Source: Theobroma cacao
Lineage: Eukaryota > Streptophyta > Magnoliopsida > Malvales > Malvaceae
Direction: 5' to 3'
Assembly (NCBI RefSeq): GCF_000208745.1
Contig: NC_030852.1
Span: forward strand, 18,973,872-19,037,871
Length of the DNA: 64,000 nucleotides
The notes beneath the pieces were generated by a model. The model saw only the letters and a list, made by a program, of their open reading frames with translations, made no database searches and was not told the DNA's origin. The position numbers and the translations under genes were made by a program. This document shows positions 12,625 through 61,306 of the stretch, piece after piece (positions within the stretch are counted from its first letter, which is position 1; every line of letters starts with the position of its first letter).

Positions 12625-13574
12625 ATGCAATGTCTTTTGTGGATTAAGCATAACTTTACAATATAATGCCTTTTATGGATCAAGCACAATCATTTGCCTT
12701 TTACTTTAGTTAAGATATAACCACTCAAACTACCTTTTAACTTGGTTAAGGTATGATTACCCAAGATGTTACAATAAATAAAAAGAGGGGAGCTGAATTG
12801 ACTTTAAAGGTTGAGTAGCTAAATGGGTACAATGTTTAGTGAAAAGGAAGATAGGAAATTAAAGCACAATAAAATTGAAGACTTGTACAAATGTGAGAAG
12901 TGAATGAGACTAATGAATGTTGAGAGTAGTAATATTCTTTTTGAATTGTGTTTTAAAGCCTTCCAACCTTCATAAATGTGATAAGAGCTTCTAGCTATAG
13001 TTGTTGAAGCTTTTGAGGTGGTTGGATGTACATTTAATGCAAAAATAGTCATTTTGCACTCTGTCCCAAACTTCTCTGTCCGAAACTTCAATGGTCACTA
13101 TCTATCGATTGATTTTATGATACACCGATAGATGACCCTTTATATTTTTAAATTTTGCGCTCATTTATTGATAGATAGCCTGATTTTATTGACAAATGCA
13201 AGTTAGAGGGTCCTCTAGGAGCTTTCGGGTTGCTATCCATTGATAAATTCGAGGAATCTATCAATAGATGGTAGTGGTCTTTGAAACCCAAATGCCAAGA
13301 TGATCAACTATCGATAGATGTTCCATCTATCTATAGATTGGCTCATTTATCAATAACTATAGAACATCTATTGATAGATAGAAGGCAAAATCCCTTTTCA
13401 AAGGGTTTTTGAATTGGTTTTTGATTTACAACACTTTGCCTTTTCTTTTTAAAATATCTCAAGTAAATTTTAACCCTTTTAAACATCTGAAAAACAATTT
13501 TGATTACTTGTTTGTCATTTAAACACTTAGAATCAAATTGAAGCAATCAAATTGAATATGTGATAAATCTAACA
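12625..13574 (-). mobile_element. Copia family A, 3' LTR (left edge unresolved)
   Basis: The right edge is firm: ...AAATCTAACA ends at 13574 and is followed by a minus-strand polypurine tract. From about 12698 to 13574 it aligns by eye along its length with 60474-61306, which identifies both as LTRs of one family. The left edge is not visible because the other copy is truncated there. It carries a cluster of ATCTATCGATAGAT-like palindromes (13096-13382). Confidence 0.7.
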
Positions 13575-13590
13575 TTCTCTTCCTTTTTGA
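13575..13590 (-). promoter_or_regulatory. Polypurine tract of copia A
   Basis: On the minus strand this reads TCAAAAAGGAAGAGAA and abuts the LTR start TGTTAGATTT. That is the expected plus-strand priming site just upstream of a 3' LTR. Confidence 0.75.
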
Positions 13591-14580
13591 TATGACAAAA
13601 CATTGAGCAAAATTTGCTTTTCTTTCTTAGAAAAAACTCCCCTTGATTTCATGCACTAAGTTTGTTGAAAAATTGTTTTTGCTTGGAGGTGTATGAGCCC
13701 CCCATAAAACCTTGCATTTAAAATAGAATTGACTCCCCTTTTAACCTTTGCATTTTCAAATCTTGCATTTGAGATTTTTATTTTAAGTGATGAACTTTTG
13801 AGAAAACAAAAGATAAATTTTAATGCATCTCGATTCTTCCCCTTTTGTTATATCAAAAAGTATTGAGACCATATGGAGCAAAAGAAAAACAAATGAAGCT
13901 GATAGAGTGTGAGAAGAGATCGAAACTAAAAAAAATACATGGACTTTGTTAGCATTAGAAAGAAAGGAAAACATACAATATAAGCAAAGAAGTGCAACCA
14001 TATCTATAACCATATCCATATGAAAATATACAAGGAAATTCAGTTATAGCTATGTATGGATAACAAACCAACACCGATAAACAACTAACTACATTCAAAA
14101 TGTAAGAAATAACAACCATGTAAAGAAATCCGAAAGAGGTAAGTACATAAAAAATAAGTAAGGACATCCGAAATATGTGTTTAATCAATAATACATGATG
14201 CATGATAGTGAGATTGACATGTAGTCATCTAATCAAAGAACCCAAAATGTGAGGCGAAGAGATGTCTCCTATGAAGACTCAAGATAGTGGTGGAAAGCAG
14301 GAGTGAAACTCATCATCAAAATCCTACAAGCATTGCAACATCTTGTGACTGTGCGCCTCGAAAGCATCCACACAACTAGTTAGCCTACTTTTCGTGGTCT
14401 CCATAAATGAGTCGAGTAAAGGCTCGCTCGACATCAAAGGTAATGGAGGCAAGAAAATCGAAACTAAATGCACCAGGCTAAGTGCTAGACATATCACTAG
14501 GATAAGTGCTAGGGTGACCCTTATCCTCCATTTCATCGATGAGAATCGGCTCATCAACGATGTCCTTGCCCACTAATTAT
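13591..14580 (-). other. Copia A 3' non-coding segment
   Basis: AT-rich sequence between the end of the accessory ORF and the polypurine tract. Its right part (14500-14580) is also found in copia B near 43085-43170. It holds no reading frame I recognise. Confidence 0.45.
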
Positions 14581-15760
14581 TCTTAAGAACGAATCCTAGC
14601 TTGTTAATGGTGTGTTCATCAATCAGGTTAAACAAAGTATGTGACATCAGTGGATCACAATTGGTGTCTACCTTAAATTGGTCGAGAATCTCGCTCATAA
14701 CCATACCATATAATAGCGTTTTAATGCCCCTATTGATGATCCTCAACATGTCATCATAATGAATTTCGTAAGGTTAATCCTATGGTTTTTCTTGATATGA
14801 TAAATGAACCAAAGGTCCTCACCTATGACAATGGAGTAGTTGAACCCTTGAGGTTGGATAATGTGGGTGATGATCAAATGGAGCACATTATCATAAAAGG
14901 ACAACCTTTTAGCACTAGAAAGGCCCTTGTCACTAGGATGTGGATACACAAACATGGACCTCAATTCAACATCATCAAAAACATACCCGTAATCCCTTTG
15001 TTGGACAAGCAAATGTAGGATGCGATCTAAGAGACCCTGAGTAACCAAAATACGTTTCCCCATAACATACGTGTCAAACTTATCACATGCGTCATTTTTT
15101 CCCTGGTGATAACATCAACAAATTTGGTTTCAGCATTGAAATAAAAGATGCACACTAAGTTTTGTTAGAATTTACGATTCAACTTAAGCATGTAGGTCCA
15201 ATCTAGACACTTAAACGTAGTAAGATATGAGAAATTAATTAACTCAAGGTAATTAAAATAGATAATGCAACCAGGCATTACCTTGATCTCAATGAAGTCA
15301 TCTTGGAATTTTTGCACATGAGATGGATAAGAGAAGTTACGTTGAAAGGAATCCTCAAAAAGGTGTGAGGACGGGCCGGTAGTGGTGAGGCACTATAGTT
15401 TTGTTGAAAGGTGGCTTTGGTTCGTTTTAGGTGGTGACTCATATTGGGAATTTTAGGGATTGTGGAATTGGACACACAGATTGGAAAAAGGTTTACTAGA
15501 TTGTGTAGGAGAGTGAGGAAATTGAGTTAATTGGATCAATTTGTCCCAAAAGTCAACAAAATCTAAGGATTGGAGAAAGGTTAAACCTAGGGTTTGGGAA
15601 AGCCTAACTCGAAATTTGTTGGAAATGCAAGGCTAATTTGTGAAAATGTTGTAGTTTTAAGGCTTGAAAGTGTTAGAAAAACACTGTAAACGGATTAGAA
15701 TCAAGGAAAAACACTTTTGAGGGGAGAGGATTTGAGAGAATAAGGGATGAGGTGTCATGC
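14581..15760 (-). pseudogene. Copia A accessory ORF (ORF3), plant transposon-protein-like, degenerate
   Basis: Lies between RNase H and the 3' LTR, in the same sense as pol. A possible ATG is near 15757. The best open piece is 14743-15063, with SFYDNVLHLIITHIIQPQGF and DLWFIYHIKKNHRINL. The matching part of copia B (43173-43427) continues into LSYGMALSKIL. The order DLW..., basic/hydrophobic block, then L-x-YG-x-hydrophobic resembles the domain that databases call putative plant transposon protein; that naming is from memory. Several stops and frame changes show it is dead. Function unknown. Confidence 0.55.
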
Positions 15761-15789: not shown

Positions 15790-16030
15790 TTAACACAAGT
15801 TGTCTATAGATAGATCATGAGTATCTATCAATAGTAGGACTAAACATTTTTATATTTGGCTATTAACCGTTATCTATTGATAGATGAGGCACAAAATTTT
15901 TATTTTTGGTTCTTGTCTTCTTTATATCAATAGATATGAATGATCTATCGATAGATAGGCCATGAGGGGTTTTGATCTTGGCCTTTGGAAGCTATCTATC
16001 GATAGACAATGTTGATATATCTATAGATGT
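15790..16030. repeat. Paired-palindrome array upstream of copia A ORF3
   Basis: ATCTATCGATAGAT-like palindromes, mostly in pairs 7-10 nt apart, at about 15800-15835, 15870-15886 (single), 15920-15958 and 15991-16030. The array sits between RNase H and the likely ORF3 start. The same motif is in the family's LTR and at the equivalent position in copia B. Confidence 0.8.
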
Positions 16031-17294: not shown

Positions 17295-19892
17295 TGTCAC
17301 GAACCAATTTCCCGAGCCATGACCGGCGCAAGAGCTCAATGAGCATAGCTCACTAAACTCAAGCAAGCCTATCCATTTACCTTTGCTTAACAAATTTATC
17401 ATATCATGCATACAGACACACCTTTTCCCGCGTGTGAACATAGCCAAAACACAATGGCATTATCGATAATAATATACATGCACTATACCAGTCATGTATT
17501 TAGCAATTTACATTGCATACACATATTCACATTGTTAGATTGTATTCATAATACAAAAGGACCCATTAATTCCAGTGGAGACATTTACAATAAAAGGGAT
17601 TACTATCGAATGCCAGACACATACCTAGGAGATGCACTACGGGGACTCCTCGATCTGGGGTCCAACAGTCACTTGATCTGAAAACATGAATTTTTATAAA
17701 ACGTAAGTACAATACTCAGTGAGTGAATATTAGAAGGGAACAAGCAATCTCAACTAGGAAATTTGACAATCATGATGCACCGATTGAAAATAAGGCCATT
17801 TTCATCTAACTACTATTCCAAACCCTTTTTCCCTTAAAACAAGCCATCCTTCCAAAATAACAATAGCAACATGTAACACATGTAAACTTCTAAATTTCAA
17901 CAAAACAAACGCTTACATATTTGCATTTACAACCATATACCCATCATCAACATGCACACCATCCCATCATCATCATCTCATATGCAACGGCTTATGCGCA
18001 TATAGTCGGGTCAGCAATGACTTATGTGCACTCCTATTCGCACATAGCCGGGTCAGCAACGGCTTATGTGCACTCTTACTCGCACATAGTCGGGTCCAAA
18101 TCAACATGCAAAGAAGCATCCAATGCATATCATGCATTTTATCATATTGTGATAACACATAAACCATTGTATAGCACATTTTCACAATATAAAATCATTA
18201 TACTAAAAGCTTGTTCCCAAGGTACATTTTCTAAGACAAGTTGGATAAAATCTTTCATATTCCCCAAAACAAGTTTGAAATGCAAGTCCACTCACCGGTA
18301 TCGAAAATCCGAATTCCAGGTGCACTCGGACTAATAGCCTTCAGGCGTAATTCTTTTGTCTTTTCCGGATGTCTCACTACCTTGACAAATAACAAAGTCG
18401 AGAAATTTACTATATTGTCCCTAAATTGATATAAACTAATTTAAATTACTAATGCTTGATACGTAAATGCAAAAATACGTCCGATTATCGCTTAATCGCG
18501 GTATCGATTAAATTCGACCAATCACCTGATTAATTTGCGATTATGTCCAAATCACCTCCAAATTAATCCATTTCTCCTCTAATACCTTAGTTTACCACAT
18601 ACCATTTAAATAAAGCCAAATTCAGCATTAGAAGCCTCACAGTTCCTTATAGAAAAATTCAGTCATTTGGTGCACTAGCATCGAAATTTTTCTACATAAC
18701 CGTTTCACCTTAATTCATTATATTTCCAAGCCATTTTCCTTGAAATAAAAACAATCCCCCATTGATATTCAGTCCTCATGGTTCGACCAACAAGGAACCC
18801 TAGAGAAATTGAATATTTCTTTTGTGTTTTTATTCATAACCATGCTTAACTATCCCTAAACACTAACATAGTCTAAAATCAAATTATTCCAACAATAATT
18901 CCTCTTCCATACCCATTTTTCAGAATTGAATTCATCATGATATCTCAATATTCAACCATGGAAATCAAGAACAAAAGCATAGGTAAGCTAGATATCAAGG
19001 AGAATTAAAGAAATTTTAACTTACCTAACTTGTTTCCTTGATTTCTTCACTTTTTCTTTGAATTTTCACCTAGGTTTTCTTGTTTTTCCCTTTGTTCTTC
19101 CTTTTTTCTTGCTGCTGGTTGCCTAGGCCGAATATGGTGAAAGAGTTGGGGATTTAATGGGCTGATTTCTATAGAAAATAATAAAATAATCCAGCATGCC
19201 ACGTGTCACATGCTTATTGGCCCAATTTTTAACTTTTTGACTTTTTCTTCTTAATTTTCCACCACAAATATTCTGGTATTTATCCAATTGTACCACATTT
19301 AAAATCCCTTGGTCTTGACAAGTGCTGGGGTGAAAAGTTTATCGATTTGCCCCCAAGACAGAAAAATTACGATTTTGCTCCTATACTCTGATATGTACCG
19401 GAATCACATTATTTCTACTTTTCAACCTCAAATAACACTATTATTGATCAATATTAACCAAATGGGGCAAAAAAAAATCATTTTATAAAGATTCCCGTTT
19501 AGTCCTCTAGTGGCAAAATTACCATTTTGCCCTCGTGCTCTAAAAATACCGGGAATCACAATTTTTCACTGCTAAACATCATTTTATACTCCAATAATCA
19601 TAATTATATTTCATATAATTATTCTTGGTCAAATGTGATCAAATCTTGGCTAGAAATCTCCATTTAATCATCATATGGTAAAATGAATGTTTTGTCCCTA
19701 ATCGATCAATTTTCCTAATGGACTCCAAATTGGACCTTGAACTTCGAATCACTATTCTAAGCCATTCTATGGGTTTCAAAATTTTCAATTTCCTCTTATA
19801 ATTTTTATTTGAACCAGTTGAAGGCTCGATTTAACTTAGTTTTGCCATTCGGTACAATACCATCTTTTAATCGAGCTTGACAGGGTTTCACA
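17295..19892 (-). repeat. Gypsy G 3' LTR (2,598 bp)
   Basis: It runs from TGTCACGAACC to GGGTTTCACA. It matches 22251-25278 over most of its length but differs in blocks at about 17730-17840 and 18300-18560. It contains 42-bp hairpin repeats at 17981-18096. Confidence 0.88.
17981..18096. repeat. 42-bp tandem hairpin repeats in LTR G (left copy)
   Basis: Nearly three units of a 42-bp repeat. Each contains arms TATGTGC and GCACATA around a loop of about 10 nt, followed by GCCGGGTCAGCAA. The 14-residue peptide repeat (AYVHSYSHIVGS type) seen in a plus-strand frame is only the 42-bp period read as codons. Confidence 0.85.
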
Positions 19893-19905
19893 TTCTCCCC
19901 CACTA
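19893..19905 (-). promoter_or_regulatory. Polypurine tract of gypsy G
   Basis: On the minus strand AGTGGGGGAGAA directly precedes the LTR start TGTGAAACCC, the expected second-strand priming site. Confidence 0.8.
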
Positions 19906-19959
19906 ATAAAAATTCGATCCCCGAATTTAAATTCAATGTAGAGTGACTTACCTTTACTT

Positions 19960-20600
19960 ATCGAAGAGGTGTGGATGCCTTGTCCGCATCTCATCCTCAA
20001 CTTCCCACGTCACCTCCTTTAAATCCTGATACCAACATTATCACTAGGGGTGGCTCCACCCTTCAAGGCAGCCCTTTCTCCCTTCCGAGACGAGCAACAA
20101 AGGGTATCTATCAAAGCACTTGGCAAGCAGTATCACTCAACCTCGTTGCCAAGCTCCTGAATGTACCACATAGGCTGCCATATGCGCCTCCTTCAATATC
20201 TCTCTCCTCAATTCATCATTATCCAGCACATAAAGTCTATTTCCATACCTCAACATTTCATCTGTGCCTTTGGTAAATATCTTTTCTTTCTTTCCATAAG
20301 GATCCTCCAACTGATCCTTAAGCTCCTTAAGGTGTCTAACACCACTAAATTAACTAAGGTATTTTTATCCTTGATTCGAGTTACGCAGGATTTATTTTCT
20401 TATTCAGTCATAAATACCTCCTTTAAAGGAGTAGGTACCACTAAGTATTCTTCTATCCTAACACGATTCTTACTCAATCGATGTGCAAAACATGTAGAAA
20501 TAAGCAGATGGGTTAAACCAGGCTCAAACAACACCCAAGCATTCATATCATAGATAGGAAAAATACCTGAGACCACTGCATTTGAGGTCCGGGCCTCTTA
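19960..20600 (-). pseudogene. Gypsy G remnants of protease and integrase ends, middle deleted
   Basis: On the minus strand a protease-like stretch (20600 to about 20330) reads [18 protein letters not shown], then FEPGLTHLLIS where this family normally has DxGxTHSFIS, so the catalytic Asp is replaced. It runs straight into KDQLEDPYGKKEKI and GNRLYVLDNDELRREILKEA, the zone before the integrase zinc-binding part. It then runs into DLKEVTWEVEDEMRTRHPHL, the usual polyprotein tail. Reverse transcriptase, RNase H and the integrase core are absent. Confidence 0.72.
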
Positions 20601-20605
20601 GGGAG

Positions 20606-22037
20606 TTATAGCATACACCCTCGCTTGGCCTCCACCAACAAAACTCTGAAGTCCGGACTCAGATGGCCTGCCTTGAGAGGAAGTACCAGCACCTCGACCT
20701 TTGGATCCACTAGCTTTCCTATCAGACGAGGCGGCGAATAAAGGAGCAAACGAAGCTGGCTGGGTGGAACCACGAGCAGAATCTTATGATTGATGAGCCA
20801 TTGTACAATCCCTCTTAATATGCCCAAGTTGACCACACCTGAAACAAACTCCCGTAGCACGAAGGCATCTTCCTCTATGTCGTCCCCTACAAGTATGGCA
20901 AGGAAGGATAAGTTGACTTCCTTGCCTCGTATCTTGCTATCTTCCAACACTTAAGGTTCTTTGTCTTGCCACAATACTAGCACTAGGCGAGTCACTCCCC
21001 TGCTGGGGTAATCGTGAGTCCCTCTGTGGACCCTGACGGCTAAAAAACGAACCACCACTACTGAAATCTTTGTGGCCTTGATAACCCTCTGTTTTGACCC
21101 TTTTTGCTCTATCCCTCACAACCCTACTCTCACTAGTCCTCATTTCAATTCGTTGAGCACAATCCACAACCGCAGAGTAAGTGTTGAAATCTCGGGAGGC
21201 CACAGCCTGAAACAATGGTTCCACTAATCCATCCACAAACTTTTGGATTTTCATCTCCTTTGTGGAAACCAAGTAAGGTGCATACCGAGATAGCTGCGTA
21301 AATTTTATATCATACTCCGACACCGTCATGCCCGAAGTCTGCACCAATGCCTCAAACTCTTTGGCTCTGGCATTTCGCACACTGTGTGATAAAAATCGAT
21401 CTAGGAAGGCTGTACTAAATTCACTCCAAGTCAGTGGTGTAGCATCTGTTGGCTTACCCCTTCGCATGGAGTCATACCATTCCTGTGCTACGTCCTCCAA
21501 TTGAAAAGCTACTAGCTCCACTGACCTAACGCTAGAACACCCCATAGCATTACAAATCTTCTCCATCTTGTCTAAGAAAACTTGGGGTTTCTCCGATACA
21601 TCTGACCCCGTAAATGAGGGAGGCTTAAGCTTTAGAAAGTTAGTGAGTGAAACCTCCATCTGACCTCTGTCACCCTCAAGAGGTTGGCGGTCTGTCTAGC
21701 CTTGGGAACTAGAAGACTCTTGCTCCACATGTCTCCCCTCTACTATCTTTTGTATATCCTCCATACGGGCTGCCATCATTTCTACAACCCGATTGACTCC
21801 CTGCAGACCCGTCGCCAAGCCCTCAACAATAATGCCTCTCACCGGTGGCCTAACAGTATCAGCTAAGGGCTGTCCCTCATCTCTCCTATTCACAGGCATA
21901 CTCGCTCTCACCGGCCTAGCGACCCTGCCACGTCTACCTCGGCCCCTACGGGTGGGTGCGCGTGGCCGATTAGTCATCCTAGTAGGGGCATCTTGCTCCC
22001 CCACTTGTCTTAAGGTGGCTCGTGTCTTAGGCGGCAT
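20606..22037 (-). pseudogene. Gypsy G gag polyprotein, frameshifted
   Basis: The start MPPKTRATLRQ at 22037 opens an Arg-rich N-terminal part (21696-22037). The capsid-like domain follows at 20937-21659 ([51 protein letters not shown]), typical of Ty3/gypsy Gag. Two zinc-knuckle motifs lie at about 20815-20905 in another frame: [12 protein letters not shown] and [14 protein letters not shown]. Stops and frame changes between the parts show it is not translated whole. In an active element it would package RNA into cytoplasmic particles. Confidence 0.82.
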
Positions 22038-22234
22038 TCTTACCTAGACAAGAGCAAACACTTGTCATTAACCACAGTTAAAGAGAAAAGGTGGTTTCTA
22101 AGATTGGAAATCTATGCGGTCCCTTGGTCGTAAAATGTGCCGCGATTCACACTTCACAACTGAATTTCCCACATAAAAACCCAACACTTCACTGGACCAA
22201 CAAATGAAAGCCCTAGGACCTAGACAAACCTAGA

Positions 22235-22246
22235 GCTCTGATACCA
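22235..22246 (-). promoter_or_regulatory. Primer-binding site of gypsy G (tRNA-iMet type)
   Basis: On the minus strand TGGTATCAGAGC, complementary to the initiator tRNA-Met 3' end, four bases inside the 5' LTR. It fixes element orientation. Confidence 0.92.
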
Positions 22247-22895
22247 CTTTTGTCACGACCTAATTTCCAGGGCCATGATCGGCGCATGAGCTCAATGAGC
22301 ATAGCTCATTAAACCCAAGCAAGCCTATCCATTTACCTTTACTTAACAAATTTATCATATCATGCATACACACACACACCTTTTTCCGGGTGTGAACATA
22401 GTCAAAACACAATGGCATTATCGATAATAATATACATGCACTATACCAATCATGTATTTAGCAATTTACATTGCATACACATATTCACATTGTTAGATTG
22501 TATTCACAATACAAAAGGACCCATGACTTCCAGCGGAGACATTTACAATAAAAGGGATTACTATCGAATGCCAGACACATACCCAGGAGATGCACTACGG
22601 GGACTCCTCGATCTAGGGTCCAACAGTCACCTGATCTGAAAACATGAATTTTTATAAAACGTGAGTACAATACTCAGTGAGTGAACAAGAAGGGAACAAG
22701 CATACCATAAGGAATGTTTATCGAAATCATGATGCATTCATTTTCTCAAAACCATGCAATTGTTTTAGCTCCTTTAAACCCCTCATGTAAACCCCACATG
22801 AGTAAATCACTTTACAAAAATCCATGCTCAACTATGGTACCAAAGAAATGGGAAATATGGCAAAAACCCACAAGTTAGCAAAATGGACAGAAAGT

Positions 22896-22934
22896 TTCTC
22901 GCTGTAGCGAACTTCATTCTCGCTGCAGCGAGAA
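22896..22934. repeat. Paired palindrome in gypsy G 5' LTR
   Basis: TTCTCGCTGTAGCGAA, five spacer bases, then the perfect 18-bp palindrome TTCTCGCTGCAGCGAGAA. It is present only in the LTR block that the 3' LTR lacks. Confidence 0.85.
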
Positions 22935-23159
22935 CCAGAACATCAAGGAAAAAGTCTCATTTTTCCCTTAAAACAAGTCATCCTGCTAAAATAACAATAG
23001 CAACATGTAACACATGTAAACTTCCAAATTTCAACAAAACAAATGCTTACATATTTGCATTTACAACCATATACCCATCATCAACATGCACACCATCCCA
23101 TCATCATCATCATGCACATCATCCCATCATCATCATCTCATATGCAACGGCTTATGCTA

Positions 23160-23355
23160 TTGTCACTAGGGGGTGGGAGATCACGAAGCATCCCCCCCTT
23201 CACTCGGCAAGAGGTGCACTTCACTCCGGATCACGAAGCAACGGAGCAGTCCCTTCCCTCCTCCTCCAAGCTCTTGGGTGGAGAGTCATACTTCGCCACA
23301 GATCATACCTATCAAAGCACTCATAGGGTGGAAGATCACGAAGCATCCAGCCCTA
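23160..23355. repeat. Inserted block with GATCACGAAGCA repeats in gypsy G 5' LTR
   Basis: It splits the hairpin repeat array of this LTR. GATCACGAAGCA occurs three times (about 23179, 23229 and 23335) between GC-richer, unrelated-looking segments. No terminal inverted repeat is clear. It is absent from the 3' LTR. Confidence 0.65.
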
Positions 23356-23365
23356 TAAGCTATGG

Positions 23366-23494
23366 GGGCAACAACGGCTTATGTGCACTCCCACTCACAC
23401 ATAGCCGGGTCAGCAACGGCTTATATGCACTCCTACTCGCACATAGTCGGGTCAGCAACGGCTTATGTGCACTCCTACTCGCACATAGCCGGGT
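23366..23494. repeat. 42-bp tandem hairpin repeats in LTR G (right copy)
   Basis: Three units of the 42-bp hairpin repeat described for the other LTR, ending in GCCGGGTCC. Copy number and base changes differ from those in 17981-18096. Confidence 0.85.
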
Positions 23495-25283
23495 CCATAT
23501 CAACATGTAAAGAAGCATCCAATGCATATCATGCATTTTATCATATTGTGATAACACATAAACCATTGTATAGCACATTTTCACAATATAAAATCATTTT
23601 ACTAAAAGCTTGTTCCCAAGGTACATTTTCTAAGACAAGTTGGATAGAATCTTTCATATTCCCCAAAACAAGTTTGAAATGCAAGTCCACTCACCGGTAT
23701 TAGGAGTAGAAATACTCCTATTTTCAGTCCGCGGGTACAGTCCTTTACCCGTATCCAATGGCTCACCACCTAGCCATAATCCATGACACATATTCCAATT
23801 AAATTGTGTCTAACAGTCATAAGCTATTTCAGGCTCGATATATATATGATATGAAATGAAAAATGCACGGGTAGCCATCTAGACCCGGTATTGGCCTAAG
23901 TCGATTTTTCATCCGATAAATTGGCCAATGCGTCCAATTTCACTCCAAATTAATCCATTTCTCCTCTAATACCTTAATTTACCACATACCATTTAAATAA
24001 AGCCAAATTCAGCATTAGAACCCTCACAGTTCCTTATAGAAAAATTCGGTCATTTGGTGCACTAGCACCAAAATTTTTTCTACATAACCGTTTCACCTTA
24101 ATTCATCATTTTCCAAGCCATTTTCCTTGAAATAAAAACAATCCCCCATTGATATTCAGCCCTCATGGTTCGACCAACAAGGAACCCTAGAGAAATTGAA
24201 TATTTCTTTTGTGTTTTTGTTCATAACCATGCTTAACTATCCCTAAACACTAACATAGTCTAAAATCAAATTATTCCAACAACAATTCCTCTTCCATACC
24301 CATTTTTCAGAATTGAATTCATCATGATAACTCAATATTCAACCATGAAAATCAAGAACAAAAGCATGGGTAAGCTAGGTATCAAGGAGAATTAAAGAAA
24401 TTTTAACTTACCTAGCTTGTTTCCTTGATTTCTTCACTTTTTCTTTGAATTTTCACCTAGGTTTTCTTGTTTTTCCCTTTGTTCTTCCTTTTTTCTTGTT
24501 GCTGGTTGCCTAGGCCAAATATGGTGAGAGAGTTGGGGATTTAATGGGCTGATTTCTATAGAAAATAATAAAATAATCACGCATGCCACGTGTCACATGC
24601 TTATTGGCCCAATTTTTAACTTTTTGACTTTTTCTTCTTAATTTTCCACCACAAATATTCTGGTATTTATCCAATCCTACCACATTTAAAATCCCTTGGT
24701 CTTGACAAGTGCTGGGGTAAAAAATTTACCGATTTGCCCTCGGGACGAAAAAATTATGATTTTACCTCTATACACCGAAATGTACCGGAATCACATTATT
24801 TCTACTTTTCAACCTCAAATAACACTAATATTGATCAATATTACCCAAATGGGGCAAAAAAAATCATTTTATAAAGATTCTCGTTTAGTCCCCTAGTGGC
24901 AAAATTACCATTTTGCCTTTGTGCTCTAAAAATACCGAGAATCATAATTTTTCACTGCTAAACATAATTTTATACTCCAATAATCATAATTATATTTCAT
25001 ATAATTATTCTTGGTCAAATGTGATCAAATCTTGGCTAGAAATCTCCATTTAATCATCATATTATAAAATGATCGTTTTGTGCCTAATCGATCAATTTTC
25101 CTGATGGACTCCAAACTGGACCTTGAACTCCGAATCACTATTCTAAGCCATTCTATGGGTTTCAAAATTTTCAATTTCCTCTTCGAATTTTTATTTGATT
25201 TAGTTCAAGGCTCGATTTAACTTAGTTGTACCACTCGGTACAATACTGTCTTTTAATCGAGCTTGATAGGGTCTCACACTAAG

Positions 25284-26723: not shown

Positions 26724-26995
26724 TGTTGTCGAATTTTATTACGCAAGTGCACATATTGTAACAAGTAATATAGAAGAAAGTAGAGTGTCGAATCCCACAA
26801 AGAATTATTCCGACTATTGCTAAGTACAAAAATTAATACAACTTAATTTTATTTAAACAATCGAATTAAATTGATTAACTAAAAACAAAACTAAAGCTAA
26901 TTAATAATTAAATTAAATCTAAAAGCTAATTATAAAACTTGACTAGAAAAATTCAATTAATAAAAGCCTAGGATTACAATATCCCGCAACATTTC
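26724..26995 (-). repeat. Athila-like 3' LTR, left piece
   Basis: It begins TGTTGTCGAATTTTATTACG and aligns with the other LTR of this element at 60077-60345 (shared GCAAGTGCACATATTGTAAC). It is cut at 26995 by copia H and resumes at 37247. Confidence 0.85.
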
Positions 26996-28177
26996 TGTTG
27001 GTCCCAAGTAAATGTGTTAGAGGGCGGGTGAATAGAACATTTTGGCTCTTACTAAGATTGACTTCTAATTGGGGACAAATGCAAGATAAAAGAAAGATTT
27101 AAAGATGAATGAAAAACTAAAAATAAAGCAGACAATCACACAAGAATTTATAGTGGTTCGGTCCAAGACCTACATCTACTACCTTGATTGTTCAACCAAG
27201 GATTTTTCAAACCAATCACTATGAACGATGAAATTCACAAGATTTCACCAAGCTTTTACAATAACTTTTTCCAGGCTCAGCCAAAACCTTTTACAATGGT
27301 TTTAACCGAGATCAACCAAAACCTAACAACTAACTTTTCTAGGTTGAGTTAAAACCTATACACTTAATCAAGCAATGCAAGCTTGAATAAATTCCCTTAG
27401 AGTGTCTCGCACACTCTAAGTATACAAGGAGAAAAGAAATAAATGTGTACCTATGATCACTGACTTAATCTAAGTGGTACAAAGTGAAGTGCTTATCTCA
27501 AATACAAAGATAGGAGTGAAGTGTAGTAAGAGTACAGAGAGTTTTGGTTGGTTTTTGAGCTCTTTTTGTTCCTAGAAGCCTTAATTAAATTTTCTAGCCG
27601 TTGAGAGCCTTTTAAATACTTGAAAAATTAGCTTTGATAGGTGTTAGGCAATTTTTGAACTTTGAAAACAGTTTAGTGGCAATTCTAGTCATTAATCTGT
27701 CTTCTAGTGCTCAATTCAAATTTTCTAACAGAATGATCTTAGTTAACTAATTACGCTCTTAGTCGACTAAGTCGTTTCTGTCTTCTGATCTTAGTTTCTA
27801 ACAGTGAGCACTTAGTCGACTAACTTACTTCTTAGTCGATTAAGTTGTTTCTGTCTTAAAGCCTAGATTTCTGGTAGTAGGCTCTTAGTCGACTAACTTG
27901 CTTCTTGGTCGACTAAGTGTTTTTCGTCTCTCAATCCTCTTGAGCCCGCCAACTTCTTATTTGAATTTTAGTTGATTAATTCCTTTCATTATCCAACTAA
28001 GAGACTTCTGTTTTGTTGATCAATTGTGGCTCCTTATTCATATGATTTTAGATATGTGCTTTTGAATGATTTATTTATTCTTAGCATACAAATTTTTGTC
28101 CTACACACTCAAGTAGAAATATTAGACACAAATGAATGGGAATGTTTTATTATCATCAAAAACTAATGGAGCCAATA
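26996..28177 (-). repeat. Copia H 3' LTR (1,182 bp)
   Basis: It ends CCAATA where the partner ends CCAACA, so one terminal base has mutated. It contains three paired palindromes built on TTAGTCGACTAA (27731-27922). Confidence 0.92.
27731..27922. repeat. Paired-palindrome array in copia H LTR (left copy)
   Basis: Three pairs of TTAGTCGACTAA-like palindromes. Spacers within a pair are about 8 nt (for example CTTACTTC), and successive pairs are about 75 bp apart. The segments between the pairs also resemble one another (TTTCTGTCTT and TTTCTAACAG types), so the whole unit is a degenerate tandem repeat. Confidence 0.85.
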
Positions 28178-28191
28178 ATCTCCCCCTTTTT
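28178..28191 (-). promoter_or_regulatory. Polypurine tract of copia H
   Basis: On the minus strand AAAAAGGGGGAGAT directly precedes the 3' LTR. Confidence 0.85.
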
Positions 28192-28870
28192 GATGATGAC
28201 AAAACATTCCTTTATTAACAGCATAGTGTCTATTGGTTCCTTTTTGGTTTTGCAAAAAATGGAGGTTTTCCTCCCCCTAAGAGTGTGCTCCCCCTTAGTG
28301 TGTGCATATTTTATTATTCTTTTTAGCAAGTTTTTATTTATGTCATATAGAGAATGACATTATATATTCAGAATATATTTATGCAAACATATAGAATGAT
28401 CAACAATAGGTGACTGGTTGATAGAATATCATCAATATTTCAACTAACAGTCTGTCATTAGCATATTGTTATCAGATTTTATTTATGCCATTGATCATCC
28501 AACAAATATAGTATATTCAATATCCATATACATTTTTAACTAAATTCCACTCACAATATCCTAACAAAAATTAATTATCAGCATAATAGCCCAATAGCAG
28601 CACAAACTTTAAACAGCAGCAGTCAAAATACTATAAACATTGATAACAGATTTAAATGTTTAACCATTAGCAATAAAATAATATAAGCAACTTAACAGCA
28701 TCCCATTTTCAACACAATAACATAAACAACAAAGTTAAATTTAGATGTTCAACTATCAACAGAGAAAAAACAGTAGAAAAACAATAGTCATTGTTTTGTT
28801 CCTAAATTGCCCCTAGATCATTTTTACCCTCTATCTCTCCTAAGTTTTTTATAATTCTCCCTCTTTTTGT
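28192..28870 (-). other. Copia H 3' untranslated segment
   Basis: AT-rich sequence with many CAGCA/AACAGC repeats, no coding potential, between the end of ORF3 and the polypurine tract. A second purine-rich stretch near 28855-28880 (minus strand AAAAAGAGGGAGAAT) looks like a duplicated tract. Confidence 0.5.
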
Positions 28871-31086: not shown

Positions 31087-31170
31087 TTTTAACTGACTGA
31101 GTCTTATTAGTTAAAGAGACAGAACACTCATAGTTGATTAAGATATTCTTAATCGACTAAGTCCTACTGT
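31087..31170. repeat. LTR-like palindrome pair upstream of copia H ORF3
   Basis: TAGTTGATTAAG, a short spacer, then CTTAATCGACTAAG, followed by CTACTGTTTTATG. Both the palindromes and the flanks resemble one unit of the copia H LTR array. It lies about 275-340 bp upstream of the ORF3 start and downstream of RNase H. Confidence 0.7.
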
Positions 31171-36053: not shown

Positions 36054-37241
36054 TGTTGGTCCCAAGTAAATGTGCTAGAAGGGGGTGAATAGCACATTTT
36101 GGCTCTTACTAAGATTGACTTCTAATTGGGGACAAATGCAAGATAAAAGAAAGATTTAAAGATGAATGAAAAACTAAAAACAGAGCAGACAATCACACAA
36201 AAATTTATAATGGTTAGGTCATAGACCTACATCCACTACCTTGATTGTTCAACTAAGGATTTTCCAAACTAATCACTATGAACGGTGAAATTTACAAGCT
36301 TTCACCAAGCTTTTATAATAGCTTTTACTAGGCTCAGCCAAAACCTTTCACAATGGTTTTTACCAAGACCAACCAAAACCCAACAACTAACTTTTCTAGG
36401 CTAAGTTAGAACTTATACACTTAATCAAGTAATGCAAGCTTGAATAAATTTTCTTAGAGTGTCTCGCACACTCTAAGAATACAAGGAGAAGAGAAATAAA
36501 TGTGTATCTATGATCACTGACTTGATCTAAGTGGTACAAAGTGAAGTGCTTATCTCAAATACAAAGATAAGAGTGAAGTGCAGTAAGAGTGCAGAGAGTT
36601 TTTGCTAGTTTTTCAGCTCTTTTTGCTCTTGGAAGCCTTAATTGCATTTCTAGCCGTTGGGAGCCTCTTAAATACTTGAAAAATCAGCTCTGATAGGTGT
36701 TAAGTAGTTTTTGACCGTTGGAAATAGTTTGGTGGCAGTTCTGGCCGTTAATCTGTCTTCTAGTGCTCAATTCAAATTTTCTGACAGAATGATCTTAGTT
36801 AACTAACCGCGCTCTTAGTCGACAAGTCATTTTTGTCTTTTGATCTCAGTTTCTAGCAGTAAGCACTTAGTCGACTAACTTACTTTTTAGTCGATTAAGT
36901 TATTTTTGTCTTGAAGCCCAGATTTCTGGCAGTAAGCTCTTAGTTGACTAACTTACTTCTGGGTCGACTAAGTCTTTTCTGTCTCTCAATCCCCTTGAAT
37001 CCCCTTGAGCCCGTCAACTTCTTATTTGAATTTTAGCTAACTAATACCTTTCATTATCCAACTATAGACTTCTATTTTGTTGATCAATTGTGGCTCCTTA
37101 TTCATATGATTTTAGATATGTGCCTTTGAATGATTTATCTATTTTTGGCATACAAATTTTTGTCCTGCACTTTCAAGTAGAAATATTAGACACAAATGAA
37201 TGAGAATGTTTTATTATCATAAAAAACTAATGGAGCCAACA
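36054..37241 (-). repeat. Copia H 5' LTR (1,188 bp)
   Basis: Partner of 26996-28177, with TG...CA ends intact. It carries the same three TTAGTCGACTAA-type palindrome pairs at about 36792-36983, with some members decayed. Confidence 0.93.
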
Positions 37242-38552
37242 ATTTCATCTGAATCTTGTCTCTCTCTCTCTAAACTTACTTCAATGGATTGAGTTGCTAA
37301 CCTAGAATCCAAAGCTATTTATGAGTCTTTGTCGAGGTTCTTACAAAAATATCTCCCCCAATTAATTTACAATATGTCTATGCAAATTAAATTAAAGATA
37401 AACTCATTAAGTTCAAGCTCTAATCTTGGCTACATACAACACATAAGTATATGTATATTCTATATGCAAACCAAATCAATCATCCCATGCAATTGAAATT
37501 GAACATATGCTATTCCATTCATGGACTACTCTAAACTCCCTTTATCAAGTTACATTTAGGTTTTCAAATCAATCTAATTGGTGATCAAGTAATTAGAAGC
37601 ATTAAACACAGAATTGGAATAAACAACTCATTTTTCATTGAAAAAAAGCAAAAGAGATGTAAAGAATTCAACTACATGTTGAGTTCAACTGCAATCCTAG
37701 AAAAAGTAAATTAGTTTATGCTTAAAAATAAAAACATACTCCAAAGAAATTTAACCATTGTAACAATTTAAGAGAAACTAAGAATAAAAAGAAAAGAATA
37801 GAAAACTAAAGATCTGTCAAATCTTCAATCTTCAATCTTGCACAATCTTTCTTGCTTTCTTGGTTGTTTTGTGGTAGCTTTTCTCTAAAGAAAGCCTAGT
37901 AAAAACCTTGCTTTTGATTGCCTTAAAGTTGCTATAGTGCTCGGTTAATTTCCTTCAAGGGTGCCATGGCCTTGCTTCACCAGCATCGTGGCACCATGCT
38001 CTTGGTTTTAGTATGGAGCTTTAGGCATCAAGGGTGCCATGGCCTCCCTCTCTCGAAGGTCGTGACCTTCGTTTTCCATCGCTGCTTTATGTAGAAACTA
38101 ACACAATATACCTTCTTATGATGCAATTTTCACCTTGTTCTAATCCAAATTGGGGAAAATGGTAATTGAAAGCTATAACCCTATCTCTTATCTTTCTAAT
38201 GGTTCAAGAATCACATCATTTGGACTTTTGGATTGAAATATATGCTCAGAATACCACAGCATGTATGAACGAAGCCATCACCATACTTGCACGAATTAAC
38301 ACCAAATAAGGTCTTTTCATCAATTTTCCTACAAAAGCAATCAAATTAATCAGAGATAACTAAACTTAAAATAAATTAATGCAATTTAACATAAAATTAA
38401 ACTAAAAGAACTAAAACTAAACTACCTAACATGCATCTGAACTGAAATAAGAAAAACAACTAAAATATTAAATTTCAAACCTAAAACCTCAATGACTTAA
38501 CTACTTAAGCACCCAAAATGTGACAAAATAACTTTATATGGTAGAGTTATTG
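37242..38552 (-). repeat. Athila-like 3' LTR, right piece
   Basis: Resumes the LTR cut at 26995 (ATTTCATCTGAATC), parallel to 60345-60473, and runs to GAGTTATTG, where a minus-strand LTR start TGATAACTC would be expected. It includes paired GC-rich palindromic motifs around 37965-38080 (GTGCCATGGC and the inverted GTGGCACC). Confidence 0.8.
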
Positions 38553-40928: not shown

Positions 40929-43085
40929 AGCATGGATTTCAAAAATTTTCTTTTATAAAAGAAGAAAGCAATCCAATTACACAAACGGAAACACACATCA
41001 TTCTTATTGCAAGTAACATAATCACATCCTAAAAATAAGAATCTATTAAGTAAGAAAAAAATGTACCTTTTTTTTAAGATTCTTATTTTTGGACACCACC
41101 ACACCAACGATTGATTTCTCAACCAAACAAGTTTACCACTTACTCTTAAAGAATGCTTTCAACTTGAACCTTGAGTGGACAAGCTGTGGAATACTAGACT
41201 ACAAGATGACAATCGATTTTGTCTCTCATTTCTTCCTAAAAATTAATGGCTATTTTTCTTCCAAAAAATTTAGCCAAGAATGGGAGAGAGGAAAAGAGAT
41301 ATGGCAAAGTTAGGATGAAGAGAGAAATATCGGCTAAAACTTTTTCAAAAAAAGTACGTACTTTTTTTTTCCAATCTCTTCTTTTTTTATTAAACTCTTG
41401 CCTCAAAGGTTTAATCAATATCAAATAACTTTGAATCAATCTTGACCATCTATTTAGAGTTATGGAAGCATCAAACATGCTCCATAATGATCAACATTAA
41501 AATTAAAGAATAAATAATTTAATTCTTTAATTATCATTTAGAATTATTGATAAAATAAAACTCCTTGTTGAATAATAACTCTTATTTTATTATTATCCAT
41601 CTTTATTTAAAAAGAATTAATAATAAATAAAAGAGTGATAGTCAAACATGGAGTCTCCTTTTATCAACATAGATGTCTAGATTCATTTTGCAGGAATCCT
41701 TTAGCATTATCGTAACTTAAGACAACTTTTGTCTTTAATTAATATGAAATATTTTATCTTGTCTAAATTGAAACAAATATGTTTTCTTGTCTAGATTAAG
41801 ATAAAAAATATTTTTCTTGTCTTAAATGAAGACAAACATATTTTCTTGTCTAAATGAAGACTAAACATGATTTTTTGTCTAAATGAAGACTAAACATGAT
41901 TTTTTATCTAAATTAAGACAAAACATGTTTTCTTGTCTAAATTAAGACAAACATGTTAAAGCTGTCATTTTTGTACACAATTTAATTAATCAAATAAAAC
42001 ATGCATTCCAACTTAAACAAGTTGAATTCCATGAAGCTAAGTGAGGAATCTATTTGGACATAGATATTCCAAGCTCTAATAAACTTAGAATTATTCATAA
42101 TCTTAGTAAAAATAATTCAAGCTTATTAACCATGAAATCACTCCACCATAGATTCATGGATATACTCTTGGATTAACTATAATTACAATAAATAATTCAA
42201 TACTTGAAATTAATTATTAGTCGTCTAATAGCAAACCTTATATTGTGAACCCTCATAACCATCTAATGACAAAAGGTGAATTTACCGTTTCACCCTTTAT
42301 GTCAATTTGGTCCCATAGTCTCAAATTTTATCCAATTAGTGGTTCAATTCTGTAAATCTAATCTTTTGAGTATTCAGATGCGATGAGTAGCTAATTCATC
42401 AATCCACTAGGCCTAGATTAAGCACTAATCTTCCTAAAATCACTAGAAGTGATGTTAATGTTATGAACTCTATTATTTGGATATATGTTCCCAGATGTTC
42501 ATCTGGATTATAATCCCAACATGCAGAGTCTAGATCAATACTTTATGATGATCATGCTCGTGGTATATCAAAGATTATAAGGAGATTAAACACGAGTTTA
42601 CTATTCATTTGGATTTCAGTTCTACTATAAGCAAATGCATAAGTGTGAGAGCATGATTTAAGTAACGGTTAAACTTAAATTTGATTCCCACATGATTCCA
42701 GTTCATGTTATAGTTTCATTACTGAAAGTCAACTATTTCGATGATTTGAGACTCATCATTCCCTTGAAATGAATCACATTCGCTCATTGGAAGTGATCTG
42801 GACACTACAGCCTTAACACAATAAAGTGACCAGCTTTATTATATGATTGTGAATAATTTTTAGATTCAATTAAAATACATGTCTCCTATGTATGACTTTT
42901 CATACAAATGTATTTTAATATCTCGATAAAATCATGGTACTTTAATAATTAGATAACAAATGCTTAATTAAAACAAACTCTTTGTCTTATTATCAAAATG
43001 TACTTTCATTACAAATAAACTAAATGAAATTAAACATAAGAATATACTTGCTTTCCAGGGCACCATATTCTCAAAATTCTTAACA
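40916..43085 (-). mobile_element. Probable copia LTR without matching target duplication
   Basis: On the minus strand it starts TGTTAAGAATTTTGAG and ATATGGTGCCC, the usual copia LTR opening, and probably ends near TGGGATTACA. Flanking pentamers ATTGA and CAAAC do not match, so one end may be truncated or the copy recombined. It includes four to six repeats of a TTGTCTAAATNAAGAC-like unit at 41750-41950. Confidence 0.55.
41740..41955. repeat. Short tandem repeat TTGTCTAAATNAAGACAAACATG
   Basis: About six imperfect units of 30-37 bp, each with TTGTCTNAAT, then AAGACNAAACATG or AAATATG. Because TTGTC and its complement GACAA occur in each unit, every unit can fold into a small hairpin. Confidence 0.75.
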
Positions 43086-43427: not shown

Positions 43428-43606
43428 TACAGTGGAGTAGTTGAACCCCTGAGGTCAGATAGTTTTAAAGGTTAAAAGTGTTAAAAAACAGTTTAAACAC
43501 ATTAAAATTGAGGAAAACACGATTGAAGTGAAAGGATTTGAGAGAATAATGGATGGGGCATCACAGGTTTGGGAAGAAATGTACGATCAGGCTGCTTAAA
43601 ATAAGT

Positions 43607-43840
43607 TGTCTATCTATAGATCATGAGTATCAACTAATTGATAAGGCTAAACATTTTTATTTTTGGCTACTAATCGCTATCTATCAATAGATAGGGCACA
43701 GACTTTTCATTTTTGGTTTCTGTCTTCTATTAATCAATAGTTATGATTGATCTATCTATAGATAGGCCACAAGGGGGTTTGATATGGGCCTACGAAAGTT
43801 ATCTATCGATAGACAATGTTGATCTATCAATAGATGTCCT
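43607..43840. repeat. Paired-palindrome array upstream of copia B ORF3
   Basis: ATCTATCGATAGAT-like palindromes in the same order and spacing as 15790-16030, including a pair at 43801-43835 with spacer CAATGTTGA. Confidence 0.8.
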
Positions 43841-44304
43841 TAGGTGGCTTTGAAAAACAGAGTTTTGACTTTCAAAAATGAGCAAGAAGGTCCAGAATTG
43901 AGTTTTTTTATCAAGGATGAGTTCATAACTTGTGCAAAAACACTTGAAGCAATATTTGGACCTAGTGCAAGTAAGATTTTTGGATTAAAACTTGGATTTT
44001 TCCAAAAATTTGTTCTCTTCCACAAGTTTTGAGGTATTTCTTGAATTGGATGGCTATGCACATGTATGCAAAATAAGTGATGAATGCATGAACATATCTT
44101 ACATCAAATTTGCAGAAACATACATCTTAATATGAAAACAATCATTTCGCACATTTATCATCTACATCATCACAAAGTCAATAATGTTCAAAGTAAAGGA
44201 TGCACTTCATCAACTTAAATTTTTCACATCAAAATCCATTAAGAGTATCCAACATTTCATCATCTAATTCATCTAAGGTGGATTCATAATACCGAATTCA
44301 TTTT

Positions 44305-56515: not shown

Positions 56516-56615
56516 GCTCATTTACACTTCAGCTTATACCATAGCTCACTATATAACCATTATCGGATAAGCTCATTTACACTTCAGCTCATACCATAGC
56601 TCACTATATAGCCAT
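56516..56615. repeat. Direct duplication of about 53 bp in LTR E
   Basis: Two copies of a segment with GCTCATTTACACTTCAGCT and CCATAGCTCACTATATA, directly after the 131-bp array. Confidence 0.88.
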
Positions 56616-58957: not shown

Positions 58958-59255
58958 GCATCTATCAATAGATATCTTACAATTTTCAACAATTTGCCTT
59001 CCATCTACCAATAGATTTGTCGAGTCTATCAATAAATGGCGCACTGGACATTTTCACCCTCTTCTCGTATTTCTATCTATCGATAGATTCTACAGATCTA
59101 TTAATAGATTACATTCCAGATATTTTCAATCCACTTAGAAGAAGACATCTCTCAACAATTTTGTGAATCTATCGATAGATATTCATCAATTTCTTATATT
59201 TCTTTCTTTTAACTTAAATTTATCGATAGACTTAGAACATCTATCGATAGATCAT
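58958..59255. repeat. Paired-palindrome array in gypsy LTR E
   Basis: ATCTATCGATAGAT-like palindromes: single near 58964, pairs near 59004-59038 and 59080-59111, single near 59167, pair near 59218-59252. The motif and spacing match those of copia A/B although the host LTR is gypsy. Confidence 0.85.
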
Positions 59256-60072: not shown

Positions 60073-60076
60073 TTGT

Positions 60077-60473: not shown

Positions 60474-61306
60474 AGGTATAACCACTCAAATTACTTTTTA
60501 ACATGGTTAAGGTATAATGACTCAGGATGTTACAATAAATGAAGAGAAATAAGCTCAATTACCTCTTAAAGGCTGAGTAGCTAAATGGGTACAATGTTTG
60601 GTGAAAAGGAAGATAGGAAATTAAAGCACAATAAAAGTTACAATTAAATACTTGTACAAATGTGAGAAATGAACGAGACTAATGAATGTTGAGAGTAGTA
60701 ATCTTCTCTTTGAATTGTTGTTTTAAGTCCTCCAACCTTTACAAATGTGGTCAGAGCTTGTATTTACAGTTGCTGAAGCTTTTGAGATGGTTGAAAGTGC
60801 ATTTAATGCGAAAATAGCCATTTCACACTCTGTTCCAAGCTTTAACGGTCACTATCTATCAATAGATTTTATGATCTATCAATCGATGACCCTTTATATT
60901 TTTGAATTTCGCTTTCATCTATCGATAGATAGCCTTATCTATCGATAGATGCAAGCCAAAACATCTTCCAATAGCTATCGGGTTGCAATCAATCAATAGA
61001 TTCGAGGGATTTATTGATAGATGGCATTGGTTATTGAAACGCATATGCCAAGCTGAACAACTATCGATAAATGTTCTACATCTATCATAGATGTCAATAG
61101 ATGTAGAATATCTATTGATATATAGAAGGCGGAATCCTTTTCCAAAGGGCTTGGTTTTGATTTACAACACTTCGCCTTCCATTTTAAAATATTTCAAGTA
61201 AATTTTGACCTTTTTGAACATGTAAAAAATTTTGATCACTTGTTTGTCATTTCAAAACTTAGAATCAAATGGAAGTAATCAAATTGAACATGTGATAAAT
61301 CTAACA
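60474..61306 (-). mobile_element. Copia family A LTR, truncated at left
   Basis: Aligns with about 12698-13574 throughout and ends in the same AAATCTAACA. It could be the 5' LTR of copia A or an unrelated solo LTR; the flank TGGTT is not matched near 12.6 kb. It contains the palindrome array 60852-61125. Confidence 0.7.
60852..61125. repeat. Paired-palindrome array in the right family A LTR
   Basis: Pairs near 60852-60887, 60918-60952, 60990-61022 and 61061-61115, so about 70 bp apart. The second pair is the cleanest: two ATCTATCGATAGAT copies with a spacer of about 6 nt. Confidence 0.88.

What the first reader, a model, noticed from the sequence alone, without database searches (positions are those of the whole stretch)
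15790..16030. The LTR palindrome array recurs directly upstream of a third ORF in copia A/B
In copia A (15790-16030) and its second copy (43607-43840), the TATCGATA-type paired palindromes of the family's own LTR (13096-13382, 60852-61125) appear again between RNase H and the likely start of ORF3 (about 15757). Flanking bases also resemble those in the LTR (ATAGATGA, then TTTTTATTTTTG-like). Copia H, a different family with a different palindrome, does the same (31087-31170). This suggests that an LTR-derived control segment was copied in front of ORF3, for instance as an internal promoter or RNA signal for a subgenomic message.
Basis: partly seen in the sequence, partly recalled or inferred. 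Interest (0 to 1): 0.78.

Follow-up and report, generated by a model that had tools for sequence, protein, structure and literature searches.

The report
Paired palindromes before retrotransposon's third gene
Old copies of a plant jumping element repeat their own start-signal palindromes in front of their extra third gene, a feature already published for these elements; here the palindromes also turn out to sit mostly in pairs about two DNA turns apart, and several other palindromes in the same genome show that spacing too.

Summary
Palindrome boxes (ATCTATCGATAGAT and decayed forms) form arrays in the LTR and in the pol-ORF3 spacer of copia A and B. Copia H carries CTTAGTCGACTAAG boxes in both LTRs and its spacer, as do four H-like elements nearby. 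It is largely known: Bousios et al. 2010 (PMC2829016) described palindromic repeated motifs in Sirevirus LTRs and 5' of the ENV-like gene, and proposed an internal promoter. These elements show Sirevirus hallmarks, but their motifs lack the usual CGG-CCG core.

That an LTR segment was copied is not supported: with boxes masked, LTR and spacer are no more alike than shuffles (11 of 11 comparisons).

What I did not find in print is the geometry. Boxes mostly come in pairs 20-21 bp apart, pairs recurring every 71-73 bp, with irregularities. Five different palindromes show it in 264 kb. Genome-wide, 1157 of 1872 TATCGATA pairs 12-42 bp apart lie 20-21 bp apart (reversed pattern 0 of 77; no second control palindrome was answered). 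Best reading: phased sites for a dimeric DNA-binding protein, serving the LTR promoter and probably an ORF3 promoter. No protein or transcript was tested.

The parts
12705..13575 (-). 3' LTR of copia A (Sirevirus-type)
   Evidence: 80% identical over 881 bp to 60466-61307; starts TGTTAG after a degraded polypurine tract
13100..13379 (-). LTR palindrome array: boxes at 13100, 13120, 13163, 13184 (weak), 13235, 13256, 13306, 13325, 13345, 13366
13136..13146 (-). TATA-like AATATAAAGGG in the 43-bp gap of the LTR array; same in B at 60890
15802..16028 (-). pol-ORF3 spacer array of copia A, 7 boxes, spacings 21, 49, 50, 21, 51, 21
15845..15858 (-). TATA-like CAAATATAAAAATG inside a gap of the A spacer array (B copy at 43652 reads CAAAAATAAAAATG)
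14327..15758 (-). ORF3 region of copia A, broken; the piece 14746-15114 has a weak match to PF20167 (E 6.7e-5, below Pfam's cut-off)
43608..43835 (-). pol-ORF3 spacer array of copia B, 7 boxes, spacings 21, 50, 50, 21, 51, 21
60854..61123 (-). LTR array of copia B
58960..59252 (-). Array C: same palindrome, spacings 43, 21, 51, 21, 51, 20, 51, 21 counting one weak box, in a different, unclassified repeat
27738..27917 (-). Copia H 3' LTR array, CTTAGTCGACTAAG boxes, spacings 20, 53, 20, 53, 20
36794..36972 (-). Copia H 5' LTR array
31129..31161 (-). Box pair in the copia H pol-ORF3 spacer, 19 bp apart
28172..28295 (-). Copia H terminal polypurine tract plus two upstream AGGGGGAG copies (Sirevirus hallmark)
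22899..22931 (.). Pair of palindromes (TCGCTGTAGCGA, TCGCTGCAGCGA) 21 bp apart, inside one of the two long repeats flanking a gypsy-type gag, in a stretch that did not align with the other repeat

Best explanation
The arrays are the palindromic repeated motifs of Sirevirus (Ty1/copia) retrotransposons: DNA regulatory sites in the LTR and again upstream of the ENV-like third ORF. Each box is a two-fold symmetric site of the kind a dimeric protein reads. Boxes mostly lie in pairs two helical turns apart, with the next pair about five turns on, so that they would face one side of the helix. A DNA-binding protein binding cooperatively would thereby switch on the LTR promoter and, from the spacer, a promoter for a separate ORF3 message. 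Within a family both arrays carry the same palindrome because the same protein reads both. Shown: boxes, places, spacings, family-specific palindromes. Inferred: protein binding, promoter function, selection on spacing.
For: Box enrichment in LTR and spacer. The palindrome is the same within an element and different between A/B and H/E. Box pair kept upstream of the third ORF in 5 of 5 H/E elements aligned. Spacing: 17 of 36 successive distances at 20-21 and 10 of 36 at 49-51, null means 2.4 and 1.0, reached by 0 of 20000 (A and B are related copies). Family-blind scan of 264 kb: 24 of 112 like-palindrome pairs at 19-22 bp and 24 at 70-73 (flat expectation 4.1 each), against 1 and 0 of 16 for mirror repeats. 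Genome-wide 1157 of 1872 TATCGATA pairs at 20-21 bp, reversed pattern 0 of 77; AGTCGACT 308 pairs against 4, with 46 of the first 50 listed at 20-21. Best common period 10.25 bp, R 0.82, 0 of 2000 nulls, over 12 chosen arrays. Gaps between boxes mostly differ from unit to unit. TATA-like sequence in or after the LTR array. Published proposal of an internal promoter.
Against: Boxes are not clearly better kept than gaps between copies A and B (spacer 0.88 against 0.82, LTR 0.81 against 0.80). The E-type LTRs use 13 bp instead of 20-21 within the pair, and 3 of the first 50 AGTCGACT pairs listed do too; these E arrays were not among the 12 arrays of the period test. Only a few spacing classes drive the 10.25-bp period (R 0.57 with each spacing once, 0.41 for listed places beyond 21 bp). 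Non-palindromic repeated 12-mers also show some excess at 19-22 bp (39 against 18.9), and 5 of the 11 palindrome pairs at exactly 20 bp are AT-rich and clustered at one place, probably simple repeats. Neighbouring gaps are alike in the A/B spacers and in H, so local duplication happened. The spacer TATA-like sequence is changed in B, and no common TATA aligns between E and H spacers. No protein, transcript or chromatin data.
Confidence: 0.5

Rival explanations
1. The arrays act as RNA: paired self-complementary boxes fold into hairpins in the genomic or ORF3 transcript (translation, packaging, or a trigger of small RNAs).
For: Spacer RNA folds better than shuffles, z -6.0 in A and -3.9 in B. 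Palindrome-rich Sirevirus LTR regions in maize are small-RNA hotspots (passages of PMC5311732 and PMC10760457).
Against: Over 19 box pairs, partner boxes show no more complementarity than shuffled partners (731 of 5000 shuffles reach it). A and B spacers fold with different partners. A hairpin needs complementary arms, not arms that are each palindromic; most of the LTR array should lie upstream of the transcript start (inference).
Confidence: 0.2
2. A promoter segment of the LTR was copied in front of ORF3 and has since diverged except for the boxes.
For: Same palindrome and similar spacing in both places; both A arrays hold a TATA-like sequence in a gap. One A LTR gap resembles one A spacer gap at p 0.01 (1 of 153 comparisons). 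In E3 the same eight letters precede the box in LTR and spacer (by eye).
Against: No flank similarity beyond shuffles in 4 of 4 A/B and 7 of 7 H/E comparisons with boxes masked. The LTR has a 43-bp gap; the spacer has an unpaired box instead.
Confidence: 0.12
3. No function: the lattice is residue of tandem duplication of a pair-bearing unit in old LTRs.
For: In H the 73-bp unit is a visible tandem repeat (78% matches). Boxes are not clearly better conserved than gaps between A and B. Neighbouring gaps are alike in the A/B spacers.
Against: In the LTR and C arrays gaps differ while spacing stays within 1-2 bp. Different palindromes share the spacing. Non-palindromic repeated 12-mers show no peak at 70-73 bp (17 against 18.9 expected), though some excess at 19-22 (39 against 18.9).
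Confidence: 0.15

Closest known systems
Sirevirus repeated motifs (RM) in LTR and 5' of ENV, Bousios et al. 2010, PMC2829016
   Same: Palindromic family-specific boxes in the LTR and upstream of the third ORF; multiple polypurine tracts; internal-promoter idea.
   Different: There 12 of 13 RMs have a CGG-CCG core, and the exception (Tnd-1, ACAATCGATTGT) has no ENV; here the cores are ATCGAT or GTCGAC with a third ORF. The abstract, sections and passages I saw name no paired spacing, and call RMs Sirevirus-specific, whereas like-spaced palindromes occur here in unclassified repeats and, as one pair, inside a gypsy-type gag element.
[quoted passage not shown] 2016 (PMC4728375)
   Same: Palindrome clusters in LTR cis-regions, small-RNA hotspots (seen only as cited in passages of PMC5311732 and PMC10760457).
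   Different: The paper itself is not held, so whether it reports spacing is unknown to me.
VANC anti-silencing proteins and their tandem target motifs in Arabidopsis VANDAL transposons, PMC5735166
   Same: Short motifs in noncoding tandem arrays that differ between related elements and are read by a coevolving element protein (abstract and passages); the likeness here is only in the changing motif.
   Different: DNA transposons; the passages do not call the motifs palindromic; no element-encoded DNA-binding protein is known to me for these Sireviruses.

Membership tests
Sirevirus (Ty1/copia) | Copia-type pol and gag | tested here: met
   H: RVT_2 2.1e-55, Retrotran_gag_2 2.3e-30; A: SH3_retrovirus 1.4e-18, pol homologous to H
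Sirevirus (Ty1/copia) | Multiple AGGGGGAG polypurine tracts, terminal one joined to AT/TG | tested here: met
   H has 3 AGGGGGAG copies, its 3' junction reading AT-TA; E1 and E2 read AGGGGGAG-AT-TG. Copia A: terminal tract degraded to AGGAAGAG-AA-TG with two GGGGAG upstream
Sirevirus (Ty1/copia) | Palindromic RM cluster in the LTR with more copies upstream of ENV | tested here: met
Sirevirus (Ty1/copia) | CGG-CCG core of the RM (12 of 13 published) | tested here: not met
   Cores here are ATCGAT and GTCGAC; a published exception (Tnd-1) exists, and not every published Sirevirus has RMs, so not disqualifying
Sirevirus (Ty1/copia) | TATA box near mid-LTR after the RM cluster | tested here: met
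   GTATAAAAGGG after the boxes in E2, E4 and one E3 LTR, near variants in E1 and the other E3 LTR; A/B AATATAAAGGG at mid-LTR but inside the array
Sirevirus (Ty1/copia) | Sirevirus clade in an RT tree | not tested
   No named Sirevirus reference RTs were fetched
Sirevirus (Ty1/copia) | ENV-like third ORF | tested here: inconclusive
   Third ORF region present, broken in A; weak PF20167 matches in A, B, H and E1, all below the Pfam cut-off; envelope features not tested
VANC-type anti-silencing system | Element-encoded protein binding the array motif | not testable with these tools
   No binding data; the ORF3 pieces scanned gave no DNA-binding family above its Pfam cut-off

The most novel reading that the evidence does not exclude
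Several retrotransposon families of this plant genome share one promoter grammar: palindromes paired two helical turns apart and repeated about every seven turns. The grammar is kept while the palindrome itself is swapped family by family, in the LTR and before ORF3 together; it may reach beyond copia (one pair lies inside a gypsy-type gag element). Such swapping under fixed geometry suggests a family-specific dimeric reader coevolving with its sites, possibly element-encoded in the manner of VANC, with ORF3 a candidate that would then control its own promoter.
Probability: 0.2. Interest if true: 0.8.

Novelty: new variant of a known kind. Interest (0 to 1): 0.5.

Why it matters
How Sireviruses express their envelope-like gene is open in the 2010 paper read here; the RM clusters are its hint, without a mechanism. 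A two-turn pair that survives replacement of the palindrome gives a concrete prediction (two dimers on one helix face, phase-sensitive) testable in a reporter assay, and a family-blind way to look for LTR control regions in plant genomes. If different families use the same geometry with different palindromes, it points to coevolving readers and to how elements keep control of their own promoters.

Tried and rejected
LTR segment copied to the spacer: no flank similarity with boxes masked. RNA hairpin function: good folding energies but no partner covariation. Early element map in which B's 5' end was 60074-60470: dropped; read by eye from recalled features (LTR end, primer site, gag wording) this stretch is an Athila-like LTR and gag, not copia. 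A TATA at a matched distance below the last box in both LTR and spacer (TTTAAAA-like near 12957 and 15660, by eye) was considered and dropped as not distinguishable from AT-rich chance. 'Always 20-21 bp' was dropped because E LTRs have 13 bp. Viral contigs gave no relatives. 50 kb from C8:9.00-9.05 Mb showed no array by the family-blind scan: 4 like-palindrome pairs, none at 19-22 bp. Wanted but not answered: other copies of the A spacer, a control palindrome (AGTGCACT), CGCTGCAGCG counts and TATCGATA pairs 43-73 bp apart.

Rows chosen or dropped: spacing used boxes scoring at least 11. One search used 12 hand-listed arrays (72 distances), some weak boxes included, and left out B, H 5' LTR, E1-E4 (with their 13-bp pairs), the ATAGTCGACTAT places near reg 168 and 213 kb and the TCGCTGCAGCGA places other than reg 10.9 kb. 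tally only the first 50 forward places listed of 1872 and of 308. In one search, 13 of 153 gap comparisons reached p 0.01 (300 shuffles each): 6 are A-B counterparts, 4 are neighbouring units of one kind of array, 3 are others (A LTR with A spacer; B spacer with H twice).

Full report
What is there. The window lies in a 324.85-Mb genome at C3:18973872-19037871. The best reverse transcriptase relatives of copia H include Theobroma cacao proteins at 79-85% identity over 64% of the query; with the genome size this suggests cacao or a near relative, which is inference. Copia A, B and H lie on the minus strand. A and B share about 80-88% identity where their copia parts align. H has paired LTRs 26996-28182 and 36054-37246, copia gag and reverse transcriptase and three AGGGGGAG polypurine copies.

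The observation. Boxes like ATCTATCGATAGAT scoring at least 12 of 14 number 38 in the window, 35 of them in five arrays of 1485 bp in all; nulls give about 2.6 per window. Two arrays are the pol-ORF3 spacers of A and B, two are their LTRs, and the fifth (C, 58960-59252) belongs to another repeat, a copy of which lies on C8. For H the box is CTTAGTCGACTAAG: 13 boxes scoring at least 12 in the window, 11 in its LTRs and 2 in its spacer, none elsewhere. The central dinucleotide of 35 boxes is CG 10, CA 11, TG 6, CT 6, AG 1, TA 1; 27 of 35 are CG or what a methylated CG decays to.

More elements. In 200 kb of flanking DNA at least four further H-like elements with an RNase H end and spacer were found (E1-E4). 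All four keep a box pair upstream of the third ORF, 19 bp apart, aligning with H, and boxes of the same palindrome in their LTRs. So the palindrome is family-specific but shared by LTR and spacer in A/B and in H/E.

Known background. Bousios et al. 2010 (PMC2829016; abstract, sections 9, 10, 11 and 20, and passages) reported palindromic repeated motifs in Sirevirus LTRs, with 77 of 79 linker copies upstream of ENV, and suggested an internal promoter. The finding given to me is therefore a new example of a published feature. The motif core differs (no CGG-CCG).

Copied LTR segment? With boxes masked, spacer and LTR of A/B are no more alike than shuffles (49, 66, 145 and 74 of 200), and the same holds in 7 of 7 H/E comparisons (51 to 483 of 500). 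Of the eight comparisons one stood out: B spacer against array C, 1 of 200 shuffles (A spacer against C, 18 of 200), unexplained. In gap-by-gap comparison (153 pairs, uncorrected) one LTR-spacer pair of A reached p 0.01 and one B spacer gap resembled two H LTR gaps. In E3 eight letters before the box agree in register between LTR and spacer (by eye). What recurs clearly is the box and its spacing.

The spacing. Successive boxes in the five arrays lie 20-21 bp apart in 17 of 36 cases and 49-51 bp apart in 10 of 36; random placement gives 2.4 and 1.0, and 0 of 20000 trials reach either. A and B are related copies, so these are not all independent. Arrays of the A and B LTR, C and the C8 copy also share one 43-bp gap near the same end; the C8 copy has 14 boxes at 21, 43, 21, 51, 21, 50, 21, 51, 21, 52, 21, 51, 21. 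Another array on C8 runs 21, 50, 21, 20, 16. Unmasked, A LTR matches the C8 C-type array over 82-89 bp at 71-72%, which includes boxes.

Family-blind test. Among 1614 near-palindromic 12-mers in 264 kb, 112 like pairs lie 12-120 bp apart: 24 at 19-22, 10 at 49-53, 24 at 70-73 (flat expectation 4.1, 5.1, 4.1). Mirror repeats give 1, 0, 0 of 16. Non-palindromic repeated 12-mers give 39, 12, 17 of 514 (expectation 18.9, 23.6, 18.9), so an excess at 19-22 is not wholly confined to palindromes. Simulated sequence gives 3 like pairs per run and none at 20-21 (3 runs). Five of the 11 pairs at exactly 20 bp come from one AT-rich place (reg 110.5 kb), probably simple repeats, and overlapping frames of one array can count twice. 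Five different palindromes contribute: ATCTATCGATAGAT, ATGTATCGATACAT, CTTAGTCGACTAAG, ATAGTCGACTAT, TCGCTGCAGCGA. The last has a pair at 22899-22931, inside one of two long repeats that flank a gypsy-type gag (PF03732), in a stretch that did not align with the other repeat. Host elements of the ATGTATCGATACAT arrays and of C were not identified; the ATAGTCGACTAT array at L012:3720-4357 lies upstream of a copia gag.

Whole genome. TATCGATA pairs 12-42 bp apart: 1872 against 77 for the reversed pattern; at 20-21 bp: 1157 against 0. A start with several partners may be counted once, which would favour short spacings. The first 50 listed spacings are 19 (2), 20 (17), 21 (15), then 29-41 (16). AGTCGACT pairs: 308 against 4; the first 50 listed are 13 (3), 20 (42), 21 (4), 22 (1). 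Listed places come from C1 and C2 only, and many must be copies of related elements, so counts are not independent events. A control palindrome could not be run.

Helical phase. The 72 distances of 12 chosen arrays fit a period of 10.25 bp (R 0.82, 0 of 2000 nulls); with each spacing counted once R is 0.57, and for listed genome places beyond 21 bp 0.41. The 13-bp pairs of the E LTRs were not in that set and do not fit.

Mechanism. I favour DNA sites for a dimeric protein, because each box is itself symmetric and partner boxes do not covary. A promoter for ORF3 is inferred from position, from the shared palindrome and from the published proposal. TATA-like sequences lie in the A LTR array (13136) and A spacer array (15845), but the B spacer copy is changed and the E/H spacers show no common TATA. 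Selection on boxes is not visible between A and B.

No transcript, chromatin or protein data. The 2016 maize paper was not held. Two searches were worded for spacing; others asked for Sirevirus palindromes, promoters, methylation or the box. No listing showed the paired spacing, but I opened only PMC2829016 and passages of PMC3599292, PMC5311732, PMC10760457 and PMC5735166.

Noticed in passing
17295-25278: Nested element with two long repeats (17295-19892, 22251-25278; 90-97% alike in pieces) around a gypsy-type gag (PF03732, minus strand 20937-21695); no pol was looked for beyond that. Resembles a gag-only terminal-repeat element (label recalled).
   Followed up: partly
58363-59250: Array C sits in an unclassified repeat with a 71% copy on C8 (L022-L001-L023). 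Below its array, and below an ATGTATCGATACAT array in L007, there is donor-site-like wording GGTAAGA (by eye).
   Followed up: partly
59500-60470: Looks by eye like an Athila-type gypsy LTR, primer site and gag abutting copia B's LTR; a like LTR piece (26724-26995, 37237-37365) is split by copia H.
   Followed up: partly
L012:3720-4357: ATAGTCGACTAT palindrome array (spacings include 21, 50, 72, 72, 21) upstream of a copia gag on the plus strand (PF14223).
   Followed up: partly
41729-41957: Tandem repeat of about 29/58 bp whose unit contains TTGTCT...AGACAA, itself an inverted repeat.
   Followed up: no
55970-56371: About three copies of a 131-bp tandem repeat, and two of a 55-bp repeat at 56505-56617.
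   Followed up: no
43590-43850 against 58900-59300: Masked B spacer matches the array C region at a score that 1 of 200 shuffles reached (one of eight comparisons); no explanation.
   Followed up: no
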